Assembly: GCF_948472415.1 (NCBI RefSeq)
Contig: NZ_OX419519.1
Location: forward strand, 372,001-436,000
Direction: 5' to 3'
Length of the DNA stretch: 64,000 nucleotides
Source: Kitasatospora fiedleri
Lineage (GTDB): Bacteria; Actinomycetota; Actinomycetes; Streptomycetales; Streptomycetaceae
The notes beneath the pieces are model-generated. The model was given only the letters and a program-made list of their open reading frames with translations. It was not told the DNA's origin and did no database searches. The position numbers and the translations under genes are program-made. How positions within the stretch are numbered: position 1 is the stretch's first letter; each line of letters opens with the position of its first letter. This document shows positions 30,833 to 38,772 of this stretch, one piece after another.

Positions 30833-31852
30833 TCACTCCGCCCGTCGGCGGCGGCGCAGCGCGGTGACCGCCGTGGCGATGCCGAGGGCGACCACGAGGG
30901 CGACGCCGGTGACCGCGGGGGCGATCGAACCGGAGGAGGGGTGCGGGGCGTCGGCTACGGGTGCGGCGTCCACCGCCACGGGCCGGCTGCCCTCAGCCGA
31001 GGGGGCCGCGGAAACGGCGGAGGCGAGCCGGTGGGCGGCTGGGACCCGCGGCGGTGTCGAGGGGCCGGCTGACCGGAAGGACTCTCCTGCTCGGCGCCGG
31101 ACCCGTCGGTGGACGGCTCGGGGGCGGACGTACCACCGCCGGACGTCCCACCGCTTCCGGTCCCACCGCCCGATGACTTGCCGGCTCCGGTTCCACTCCC
31201 GGTCCCGCCACCGGACGTCCCACCACCGGACGTCCCACCGCCCGTACTGCCGCCGCCGGCAGGAGGGGTCGGCTTGGGCGCGGCGGTCTGGGTGGTGCCG
31301 CCGGGGGTGGTGTTGTGGGCGCGGACGCTGTCGGGCGAGAAGGTGGGACGGCCCTCGGTGCCCTCGATGTCGGTGCCACCGAAGATCCACAGGTCGACGC
31401 TGCCCGGCACCGGGTGGTAGCTCATCGCCCCCAACTGGCTGTAGGACCAGGTGTTCTGGCCCGGGTCGGCGTGCCAGTACGACCAGTACGCGGTGGCGGG
31501 CGGGGTGAGGACGCACTTCTCCTGGGCCGGGTCGGGTACTGGGTGCCGCCCTGGTGGCCGCTGTAGCCGATTCGGCAGATGAAGGCCGGGCCGTCGTGCT
31601 GGGTGCCGGTGGTCTTCCAGCCGCCCTGGTTGAGCAGTTGGTAGCCGGTGGTCGGCGTGGTGCCGCAGGAGCGCAGCAGCGGGCCGCCCCAGTGGCTGAA
31701 GTCGACCGCCAGCACCACGCCGGAGGTGGTGGTGCACTGCTCGATCGGCAGCGCCGTGGCGGCGGCCGGGGTCGCCCCGGGCCGAGGCCGACCAGGACGA
31801 GGGCGAGGGCGGCACAGCCGGATGCGGCGCGCGCGGCGAGCCGGCGGATCAC
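30833..31852 (-). CDS. Surface DUF4430-like (transcobalamin beta-domain-like) protein, membrane-anchored
   Basis: The GTG at 31,852 overlaps the preceding stop. After a signal peptide (IRRLAARAASGCAALALVLV) comes the beta domain: EQCTTTSGVVLAVDFSHWGG, TGTQHDGPAFICRIGYSG, then AYWSYWHADPGQNTWSYSQ and PVPGSVDLWIFGGTD. A long Gly/Ser/Thr linker leads to one C-terminal helix (VTGVALVVALGIATAVTALR) and RRRRAE. Breaks of one base occur near 31,785, 31,545 and 31,060. It is coupled to EcfT downstream; a role in presenting corrinoid to the transporter is inferred. Confidence 0.78.
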   Translation of the reverse strand: MIRRLAARAASGCAALALVLVGLGPGRPRPPPRRCRSSSAPPPPAWCWRSTSATGAARCCAPAAPRRPPATNCSTRAAGRPPAPSTTARPSSAESATAATRAAPSTRPGPGEVRPHPARHRVLVVLARRPGPEHLVLQPVGGDELPPGAGQRRPVDLRWHRHRGHRGPSHLLARQRPRPQHHPRRHHPDRRAQADPSCRRRQYGRWDVRWWDVRWRDREWNRSRQVIGRWDRKRWDVRRWYVRPRAVHRRVRRRAGESFRSAGPSTPPRVPAAHRLASAVSAAPSAEGSRPVAVDAAPVADAPHPSSGSIAPAVTGVALVVALGIATAVTALRRRRRAE

Positions 31853-37704: not shown

Positions 37705-38772
37705 TCAGTGGGCCGCGGGGCAGGCGAGGACAGGTGCGGTGGGGCGGGCGCCGCGGGCCGAGAGGGAGACCAGCGGCGTGCCGGAGAGCCCGAGGACGGC
37801 TTGGGCGGTGGCGCGCGCGGCGTTGCCCGGGTCGAAGCCGGTGGCGTCGTAGGCGACCGCGCCCCGGACGGCCGAACCGGCGGCGCAGCCCTGCTGGAGC
37901 TTGACCAGAGCGCCCCAGCCCTTGAGCCCGGCCACGAGGCGGCCGGAGGACAGCAGGCTCTCGGTGGCGAGCCCGGTGCTGTTGGCGTTGGAGGCGGCGG
38001 CCCCGGCCGCGGCGAACCCGCCGTCGGCGTTCTGGTGCGCGCTCAGCCAGTTCAGTCCGGCGGCGGCCTTCGCGGCGCGTCCGGTGGCGGCGAGGGCCTG
38101 GACGGCGAGCGCGGTGGCGTCCGGGTCGGCGGTGCAGGCGGCCTGGCCGAAGGAGACCGGGAACCCGCCGTCCGCGCACTGGCTGCCGGCCAGGAAGTCG
38201 ACGGCCGCGGCCGGGGCCCCGGCGGGGGTGCGGGTGAGGGCGATGACGGCCAGGGACTGGCCGAAGGAGTTGCTGTAGTCGCCCCACTGGGAGCGGTCGG
38301 AGAACCGGCCGCTGGGCGTCTGCAAGGAGCGCAGCCGGGCCGGGAGGTCGACACCGCCGAAGGCGGCCGGGTTCACGCCGCGGACCTCGGCTGCGAGCAG
38401 GAGCTTCGCGGTGGCGCCCGCGTACGCCTCAATGGTGCCGTCGCCCAGGTAGCCGGCGGTGTTCTCCGGCCGGGCGAGCCAGGCGGTCGCACGGGCGGCG
38501 GCCTCGTCGGAGCTGTGCGAGGCGGCGAAGGCCAGCACGGCGTCGATGGTCAGCCCCTGGTCGGGGTAGGCGGTGCCGTCGAAGACGGTCTCGAAGTGGT
38601 CGCCGTCGACGAGTTGGCGGGCCAGCCAGCCCGCAGCGGCGGCGTCCGGCCGGAGGGCGGCGGTGCCGGCGGGGACCGGGGCGGCCTGGGCGGGGACGGC
38701 CGCGGGGAGCGTGGCCGCGAGGGCGAGCGCCGGTATCGCGAGCAGGCGCAGGGGGCGGCGGAGCACGGTCAT
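37705..38772 (-). CDS. Secreted alpha/alpha-barrel (prenyltransferase-like repeat) protein
   Basis: 355 residues from ATG 38,772, intact frame. Signal peptide LRLLAIPALALAATLPAAVP, ending AQAAP. The rest is helical barrel repeats with the D-G-G-F/W turns typical of the fold: QCADGGFPVSFGQAACTADP and NWLSAHQNADGGFAAAGAAA. It lacks the Asp-rich catalytic motif of terpene cyclases and is exported, so it is not an enzyme of that type. A cobalamin riboswitch precedes it and a beta-domain gene follows 40 nt downstream. Confidence 0.85.
   Translation of the reverse strand: MTVLRRPLRLLAIPALALAATLPAAVPAQAAPVPAGTAALRPDAAAAGWLARQLVDGDHFETVFDGTAYPDQGLTIDAVLAFAASHSSDEAAARATAWLARPENTAGYLGDGTIEAYAGATAKLLLAAEVRGVNPAAFGGVDLPARLRSLQTPSGRFSDRSQWGDYSNSFGQSLAVIALTRTPAGAPAAAVDFLAGSQCADGGFPVSFGQAACTADPDATALAVQALAATGRAAKAAAGLNWLSAHQNADGGFAAAGAAASNANSTGLATESLLSSGRLVAGLKGWGALVKLQQGCAAGSAVRGAVAYDATGFDPGNAARATAQAVLGLSGTPLVSLSARGARPTAPVLACPAAH

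What the first reader, a model, noticed from the sequence alone, without database searches (positions are those of the whole stretch)
30833..38772. Bacterial relatives of intrinsic factor/transcobalamin in fused, split and doubled forms
Intrinsic factor and transcobalamin are an alpha/alpha barrel plus a beta domain with B12 between them. Here one protein has barrel then beta domain (35,304-36,706), one pair encodes barrel and beta domain separately (37,705-38,772 and 37,186-37,664), one has a beta domain plus two barrels (31,849-34,767) and one a beta domain on a membrane stalk (30,833-31,852). All are exported, and each is preceded by or in an operon with a cobalamin riboswitch. This looks like an undescribed family of extracellular corrinoid carriers.
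Basis: partly seen in the sequence, partly recalled or inferred. Interest (0 to 1): 0.93.

Follow-up and report, generated by a model that had tools for sequence, protein, structure and literature searches.

The report
Bacterial transcobalamin-like B12 capture operon
A soil bacterium carries a cluster of genes, behind three predicted vitamin-B12-sensing RNA switches, for proteins that are predicted to be exported, one of which is predicted to fold like our own B12 carriers transcobalamin and intrinsic factor; lying beside genes for a predicted importer, they likely catch B12 outside the cell and pass it inward.

Summary
The observation largely holds. The window (73% GC, nearest named relative a Kitasatospora) encodes a barrel-beta protein, a separate barrel gene and beta gene, a beta+two-barrel protein and a membrane-stalked beta protein, followed by EcfT, a double EcfA and an EcfS. 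All three transcription units have a cobalamin riboswitch (two above Rfam's cut-off, one just below). Six of these eight genes change frame in this assembly; a relative (L007) has them open and other window genes are broken too, so sequencing error is likely. A model of the barrel-beta homologue (pLDDT 88.6) has transcobalamin, intrinsic factor and haptocorrin as its 15 best PDB matches. Its beta domain is DUF4430; the aromatic beta domain of the other proteins is at best weakly linked. In 60 loci with complete flanks, riboswitch (59), divergent barrel-beta gene (54) and ECF genes (57) recur. The general idea is in print: Burroughs et al. 2007 predicted bacterial toroid+beta-grasp proteins as B12 scavengers beside CbiO/CbiQ. 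New here: the actinobacterial forms, separable modules, a possible wall/membrane relay, and a genome that carries CobN, CobK and CbiC. B12 binding is untested. Verdict: new variant of a known kind.

The parts
38870..38989 (-). cobalamin riboswitch in front of the split barrel/beta pair
   Evidence: RF00174 32.8 bits (GA 31.5); model R1 74.4 bits at 38,884-38,972, (R1 includes this sequence)
37705..38772 (-). stand-alone alpha/alpha barrel, 355 aa, hydrophobic N-terminus with AxA-type site (by eye)
   Evidence: open frame; SQHop_cyclase_C and Prenyltrans matches below cut-off; SCO2321_fam E 1.6e-38 but 132.7 bits against a 300-bit cut-off; 89% identical open gene in L007
37186..37664 (-). stand-alone aromatic beta domain (YWSYW type), about 159 aa; the last codons are out of frame in the window
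   Evidence: 95% identical open gene in L007; 4 Cys in 36 of 38 homologues
36790..37128 (+). small hydrophobic ORF between the two carrier units (112 aa), role unknown
   Evidence: 72% identical ORF in L007
35304..36706 (+). fused barrel then DUF4430 beta domain (transcobalamin order); one frame change in the window
   Evidence: 467-aa homologue P0121, 91% identical; its model pLDDT 88.6; Foldseek; hhalign
35104..35175 (+). cobalamin riboswitch in front of the barrel-beta gene
   Evidence: RF00174 39.3 bits; R1 81.8 bits at 35,098-35,181, (R1 includes this sequence)
34911..35015 (-). cobalamin riboswitch in front of the beta-two-barrel/ECF operon (below the Rfam gathering score)
   Evidence: RF00174 30.3 bits against 31.5, E 5.4e-5; R1 85.2 bits at 34,895-34,981, (R1 includes this sequence)
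31849..34767 (-). aromatic beta domain + two alpha/alpha barrels + Ser/Pro-rich stalk + LAxTG-like sorting signal; two frame changes in the window
30833..31852 (-). aromatic beta domain on a Gly/Pro-rich stalk with C-terminal membrane helix and Arg-rich tail; frame changes in the window
   Evidence: open in L007; at least 3 Arg/Lys in the last 14 residues of 74 of 77 homologues
29636..30828 (-). EcfT-like (CbiQ) membrane protein; frame change near its end in the window
   Evidence: L007 homologue matches PF02361 CbiQ E 1.3e-8, 35.2 bits against 25
28000..29636 (-). EcfA-type double ABC ATPase; one frame change in the window
   Evidence: L007 homologue: two ABC_tran stretches; TIGR01166 cbiO 228.6 bits against 211.8
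27173..28000 (-). ECF substrate-specific (S) component
   Evidence: PF12822 ECF_trnsprt: 29.8 bits for the window piece (cut-off 30.7), 32.0 for the L007 homologue

Best explanation
Three predicted cobalamin riboswitches stand in front of genes for predicted exported barrel and beta-domain proteins next to predicted ECF importer genes, and the products likely form a corrinoid capture-and-import system in which transcobalamin-like proteins catch B12 outside the cell. Shown by sequence and models: the gene set, its order, the riboswitch matches and their conservation, and the transcobalamin-like predicted fold of the barrel-beta protein. Inferred: when intracellular B12 falls, the riboswitches release expression; the barrel-beta protein and the split barrel plus beta pair are set free and clamp a corrinoid between barrel and beta domain; the beta-two-barrel protein, probably fixed to the cell wall through its LAxTG signal, and the membrane-stalked beta protein concentrate it at the surface; EcfT, EcfA and EcfS import it. 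Untested: corrinoid binding, the hand-over between proteins, and the importer's substrate.
For: Riboswitches on all three units. Of 80 loci, 60 have complete flanks: riboswitch before the beta-two-barrel gene 59, divergent barrel-beta gene 54, riboswitch on its strand 57, stalk gene 58, EcfA 57, EcfS 57; the leader profile gave 215 hits in window plus 80 loci and 0 in order-1 Markov copies. Barrel-beta model: top 15 PDB matches all transcobalamin, intrinsic factor or haptocorrin, E 6.9e-9 to 3.5e-7. Beta domain to DUF4430 profile: 93%, E 2.8e-7. Natural rearrangements: L062 and L063 carry the beta part and one anchored barrel as separate frames, each behind a riboswitch; L018 has a fused gene plus a beta frame and a barrel frame apart. 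Even Cys counts: 35 of 45 beta-two-barrel, 33 of 45 barrel-beta, 36 of 38 beta-only homologues. CbiQ, CbiO and ECF S homology. Neighbouring genes fit B12 shortage: metE behind its own riboswitch, methylcitrate genes.
Confidence: 0.72

Rival explanations
1. The system captures a different ligand that is needed in B12 shortage or feeds B12 use (incomplete corrinoids such as cobinamide, lower-ligand bases, cobalt chelates), not complete cobalamin.
For: Riboswitch control says only that the genes respond to corrinoid level. CbiO/CbiQ-type genes also serve cobalt uptake (family names). The genome has CobN, a CobK-type reductase and CbiC. Burroughs et al. raised a distinct metabolite for archaea that make B12.
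Against: The 15 best structural matches of the barrel-beta model are all B12 binders; a large two-domain carrier is unusual for cobalt ions or bases (inference).
Confidence: 0.17
2. The barrels are secreted terpene-cyclase or prenyltransferase-like enzymes, as public annotation says (prenyltransferase/squalene oxidase repeat).
Against: The type II cyclase motif was found in 0 of 119 beta-two-barrel homologues (D.DD[TS]A) and 0 of 120 barrel-beta homologues (D.DD[TS]) (motif recalled); apparently exported or anchored; behind cobalamin riboswitches; one kind fused to DUF4430.
Confidence: 0.04
3. The cluster is a decaying locus and its broken frames mean that the strain no longer makes these proteins.
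For: Frame changes in six of the eight genes (by eye against homologues).
Against: Three window genes outside the finding are broken too (prpD and two at 55-59 kb); in 17.8 kb aligned to L007, one-base gaps are 25 on the window side against 10 on the other, 32 of 43 short gaps near G/C runs (no control for how common such runs are in 73% GC), as in an unpolished long-read assembly; the genes are open in relatives (barrel-beta in one piece in 11 of the 13 genomes of the genus sample that have it).
Confidence: 0.07

Closest known systems
Animal transcobalamin, intrinsic factor and haptocorrin (B12 carriers)
   Same: N-terminal alpha/alpha barrel and C-terminal DUF4430-type beta domain in one chain (35,304-36,706); best PDB matches of the model
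   Different: Very low identity (12-15%); no PF01122 match listed; also split, doubled and anchored forms; riboswitch control; an ECF importer beside it in place of a receptor
Bacterial transcobalamin-like SLBB clade (Burroughs et al. 2007, PMC1796856)
   Same: Exported toroid+beta proteins in either order, paralogues in one operon, CbiO/CbiQ neighbours, predicted B12 scavenging
   Different: That paper lists low-GC Gram-positives, planctomycetes and euryarchaea for this clade and says the bacterial hosts usually lack key B12 synthesis enzymes; here an actinobacterium with CobN, CobK-type reductase and CbiC, an aromatic beta domain of unproven kinship, two barrels in one chain, a riboswitch on each unit
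SCO2321/SCO2322 families (NCBIfam NF053823, NF040672) and the second locus of this genome (G000:C1 about 2.3716-2.3775 Mb)
   Same: Barrel gene, beta gene, EcfT-, double-ATPase- and S-like frames, weak riboswitch in front
   Different: Barrel is single and membrane-anchored (by eye); the beta protein may have its two halves in the opposite order (weak); scores of the window's proteins are below those families' cut-offs
ECF-CbrT vitamin B12 transporter of Lactobacillus delbrueckii (PMC5997447, passages read)
   Same: ECF-type importer, here predicted to serve B12
   Different: No extracellular carrier proteins in the passages read; the S component here has no sequence match to any PDB chain
BtuG-type surface B12 lipoproteins of Bacteroides (PMC6143338, PMC10404256; search listing only)
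   Same: Works like: surface capture of B12 before import
   Different: Gram-negative lipoproteins that partner an outer-membrane transporter; no kinship tested

Membership tests
Transcobalamin/intrinsic-factor-like carriers (barrel-beta protein) | alpha/alpha barrel domain | tested here: met
Transcobalamin/intrinsic-factor-like carriers (barrel-beta protein) | C-terminal DUF4430 (SLBB) beta domain | tested here: met
   hhalign 93.3%, E 2.8e-7 to a DUF4430 profile; PF14478 in 23 of 45 homologues at E<=1, best 2.8e-5; window piece 19.1 bits, below cut-off; P0121 itself no match
Transcobalamin/intrinsic-factor-like carriers (barrel-beta protein) | whole-chain match in carrier order | tested here: met
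   the 15 best Foldseek PDB matches are B12 carriers over 457-488 columns; TMq only 0.33-0.41 and rmsd about 20
Transcobalamin/intrinsic-factor-like carriers | PF01122 Cobalamin_bind match | tested here: not met
   not listed at E<=1 for 8 window pieces nor for 45 homologues; that the Pfam family is eukaryotic is recalled
Transcobalamin/intrinsic-factor-like carriers | binds cobalamin between the domains | not testable with these tools
   needs protein and ligand
SLBB transcobalamin-like clade (aromatic beta domains at about 31.5, 34.5 and 37.4 kb) | profile kinship to DUF4430 | tested here: inconclusive
   hhalign 2.6%, E 0.018, collinear; score 19.5 against a maximum of 16.5 in 60 column shuffles; 0.3%, E 0.21 against the barrel-beta protein's beta domain; 0 of 38 hit DUF4430
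SLBB transcobalamin-like operons (Burroughs 2007) | CbiO/CbiQ-like neighbours | tested here: met
   EcfA in 57 of 60 complete loci
SLBB transcobalamin-like operons (Burroughs 2007) | host usually lacks key B12 synthesis enzymes | tested here: not met
   CbiC E 4.2e-73; CobN and precorrin-6A reductase above cut-off
SLBB transcobalamin-like operons (Burroughs 2007) | signal peptide or wall anchor | tested here: inconclusive
   L[AP]xTG near the end of 39 of 45 homologues, basic tail in 74 of 77 stalk proteins; N-termini read by eye only
Cobalamin riboswitch RF00174 | score at or above the gathering score | tested here: met
   met for 35,104(+) 39.3 and 38,870(-) 32.8 bits; not met for 34,911(-), 30.3 against 31.5
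ECF transporter | EcfT, EcfA and S component | tested here: met
   in the open L007 homologues
B12-specific ECF S component (CbrT) | sequence kinship to CbrT | tested here: inconclusive
   no PDB sequence match at E<=10; that a CbrT structure is in the PDB is recalled; sequence search only
Type II terpene cyclase | DxDD catalytic motif | tested here: not met
   0 of 119 and 0 of 120 homologues; motif recalled

The most novel reading that the evidence does not exclude
Actinobacteria run a B12-shortage relay of bacterial transcobalamins: freely secreted barrel-beta proteins and two-part clamps act as corrinophores (the siderophore idea applied to B12), hand their cargo to wall-anchored double-barrel and membrane-stalked beta receptors built from kindred modules, and on to a dedicated ECF importer; the barrel and beta modules are freely fused, split, doubled and perhaps even permuted.
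Probability: 0.4. Interest if true: 0.86.

Novelty: new variant of a known kind. Interest (0 to 1): 0.72.

Why it matters
How Gram-positive bacteria, and soil actinomycetes in particular, catch corrinoids outside the membrane is little known (my knowledge), and these proteins are filed in public databases as prenyltransferase repeats, peptidases or 'FliK'. If the reading holds, B12 carriers like ours exist as small bacterial systems in which barrel and beta domain come as separate proteins, so the clamp between the two can be studied part by part, and the origin of animal intrinsic factor and transcobalamin can be tested. It would also show that a genome with B12-synthesis genes invests in several outside traps for B12.

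Tried and rejected
Decay of the cluster: not the main reading. Secreted terpene cyclases: unlikely. Sequence search of solved structures with the profiles: barrel-beta gave six squalene-cyclase-type matches at E 0.01, beta-only nothing below E 1, beta-two-barrel cyclases, prenyltransferases and complement-type proteins; B12 carriers appear only through predicted structure.

Permutation test: in 30 of 30 SCO2322-like proteins the first segment matches the end of the aromatic-beta profile (E 1e-9 to 1e-5). A later segment matches the start only at 1.1-10.6 bits, 3.9 or less in 29, while shuffled copies reached 4.1 bits; doubling the proteins gave no joined full-length match. The second half is therefore not shown.

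Faults: hhalign (shallow profiles, unknown option; DUF4430 rows of minus-strand hits read on the wrong strand) are superseded; there L142 (cut short) and L148 (wrong stretch) of the 30 rows were left in. The EcfT query and one protein were out of frame; EcfT was therefore not tallied and was tested again. Loci were chosen by the beta-two-barrel protein, so its presence is by construction; 20 of 80 loci with short flanks were dropped before the 60-locus counts; of the misses, L013 has both riboswitches but its gene start was set too far down. R1 and the DNA profile were built from 12 leaders, 3 of the window and 9 of six loci. In some searches at most 8 candidates a genome were scored, so counts may be low. 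Protein searches listed 120 each of 895, 1089 and 448 hits; alignments used 45, 45 and 38 of these. Papers: PMC1796856 passages and part 1 of section 7; PMC5997447, PMC8914203 and PMC8079986 passages; others search listings only; Rodionov 2009 not held. No paper on this actinobacterial system was seen in the listings of ten searches of an open-access library; long listings were cut.

Full report
What is in the window. The region 27.1-39.0 kb holds three transcription units. Minus strand, from 34,767 down: a beta domain followed by two alpha/alpha barrels, a Ser/Pro-rich stalk and a LAxTG-like tail (to 31,849); a beta domain on a membrane stalk (31,852-30,833); then EcfT, a double EcfA and an EcfS (30,828-27,173). 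Plus strand: barrel then beta domain (35,304-36,706). Minus strand: a stand-alone barrel (38,772-37,705) and a stand-alone beta domain (37,664-37,186).

Frame breaks. Six of these eight genes change frame in the window; the split barrel and EcfS do not (by eye against homologues). The nearest named relative, L007 of Kitasatospora sp. SolWspMP-SS2h, has the same genes in the same order with open frames. Three window genes outside the finding are broken as well. In 17.8 kb aligned to L007, one-base gaps fall 25 times on the window side and 10 times on the L007 side, and 32 of 43 gaps of one or two bases lie near a run of three or more G or C; how often such runs occur by chance at 73% GC was not tested. 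I read this as sequencing error; decay is not excluded. Domain statements rest on open homologues and in-frame pieces, not on mended frames.

Riboswitches. Rfam's cobalamin aptamer RF00174 is found at 35,104(+) with 39.3 bits and 38,870(-) with 32.8 bits, both above the gathering score of 31.5, and at 34,911(-) with 30.3 bits, just below. A covariance model made from 12 such leaders, the window's three included, scores them 81.8, 74.4 and 85.2 bits. The whole genome holds 13 matches at E<=1, 10 of them over the cut-off.

Conservation. A scan of named genomes gave 80 loci, mostly Streptomyces and Kitasatospora, with Actinacidiphila, Micromonospora, Dactylosporangium, Catellatospora and metagenome bins. 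Of the 60 with complete flanks, 59 have the riboswitch before the beta-two-barrel gene, 57 a riboswitch on the opposite strand, 54 the divergent barrel-beta gene, 58 the stalk gene, 57 EcfA, 57 EcfS; 9 have the split barrel and 10 the stand-alone beta gene. A DNA profile of the 12 leaders found 215 hits in window plus 80 loci and none in order-1 Markov copies. The barrel-beta gene is patchy: 13 of 61 genomes in the genus sample, 26 of 200 in the family, 1 of 197 in the class (own genome counted).

Modules come apart. L062 and L063 carry the beta domain and a single anchored barrel as two frames, each behind a riboswitch; Catellatospora L069 has an anchored barrel and a stalked beta protein; L018 has the fused gene and, elsewhere, a beta frame and a barrel frame parted by a stop (not checked further). 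Fusion in one genome and separation in another argues that barrel and beta domain work together (inference).

Not enzymes. The DxDD motif of type II cyclases (recalled) is in 0 of 119 and 0 of 120 homologues; Cys numbers are even in 35 of 45, 33 of 45 and 36 of 38 homologues; 39 of 45 beta-two-barrel proteins end in an L[AP]xTG-like signal; 74 of 77 stalk proteins end in a basic tail.

Setting. metE lies at 46,639-48,945(-) behind a riboswitch at 49,095-49,332; a methylmalonate-semialdehyde dehydrogenase gene follows the riboswitch at 55,033 (its match stops at profile position 289 of 477); prpD, prpB, methylcitrate synthase and a metF-type gene lie at 38.9-46.3 kb. metE and the methylcitrate cycle are B12-independent routes (established knowledge), so the area reads as a B12-shortage region. 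The genome also has CbiC, CobN and precorrin-6A reductase; it probably makes B12, unlike the hosts in Burroughs et al.

Second locus. At G000:C1 about 2.3716-2.3775 Mb a weak riboswitch (22.9 bits) precedes a barrel with a C-terminal membrane helix, a beta protein of the SCO2322 kind and EcfT-, double-ATPase- and S-like frames, named by eye from their likeness to the window's. Its beta protein was found in 39 of 61 genomes, all 37 of the genus sample (own included) among them. In 30 of 30 such proteins the first segment matches the second part of the aromatic-beta profile (E 1e-9 to 1e-5); by eye the other half follows it, which would be a circular permutation, but the profile does not carry that half above shuffled sequence and the doubling test gave no joined match.

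Mechanism. I commit to a corrinoid capture and import system (0.72): released carriers, surface-fixed receptors, ECF import, all induced in B12 shortage. Shown: genes, leaders, conservation, predicted fold of one protein. Inferred: release, anchoring, relay, substrate. Untested: binding.

Novelty. Burroughs et al. 2007 (PMC1796856) already proposed B12 scavenging by bacterial toroid+SLBB proteins with CbiO/CbiQ. The present system is a new variant: actinobacterial, a riboswitch on every unit, double barrel, an aromatic beta domain of unproven kinship, and a host with B12-synthesis genes. No paper on it was seen in the listings of ten searches of an open-access library (named in Tried and rejected).

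Noticed in passing
L100:7262-7933 (G000:C1:2373262-2373933) and homologues L102-L131: SCO2322-like beta proteins begin with the part that ends the aromatic beta domain (30 of 30 homologues); by eye the other half follows, a possible circular permutation, but the second half is not above shuffled sequence and the doubling test was negative.
   Followed up: partly
L100:5558-12000 (own genome, second locus): A second barrel, beta and ECF-like locus with a riboswitch below threshold (22.9 bits); its beta gene is in all 37 genomes of the genus sample, own included.
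   Followed up: partly
46639-48945 (-) with 49095-49332 (-): metE behind a strong cobalamin riboswitch (83.8 bits).
   Followed up: yes
53528-55039 (-) with 55033-55223 (-): Methylmalonate-semialdehyde dehydrogenase gene behind a cobalamin riboswitch (83.9 bits); a cobalamin riboswitch before such a gene is reported in S. griseus (PMC8914203, passages).
   Followed up: partly
38868-46265 (+): prpD, prpB, methylcitrate synthase and a metF-type gene beside the carriers, so B12-independent propionate genes and a methionine-pathway gene cluster with B12 uptake.
   Followed up: partly
whole window: Frame changes recur in unrelated genes, with an excess of one-base losses against L007: probably an unpolished long-read assembly.
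   Followed up: partly
37186-37664 and homologues P0241-P0255: Public databases of these 15 stand-alone beta proteins 'flagellar hook-length control protein FliK', which looks like a wrong name; the accession PF28005 is attached in the protein database, but P0241 gave no match in the Pfam copy here.
   Followed up: no
36790-37128 (+): Small hydrophobic ORF between the carrier units, 72% identical in L007, unknown role.
   Followed up: no
L018:5352-7583 (-): A locus with a fused beta-two-barrel gene and also a beta frame and a barrel frame parted by a stop, behind a further riboswitch.
   Followed up: no
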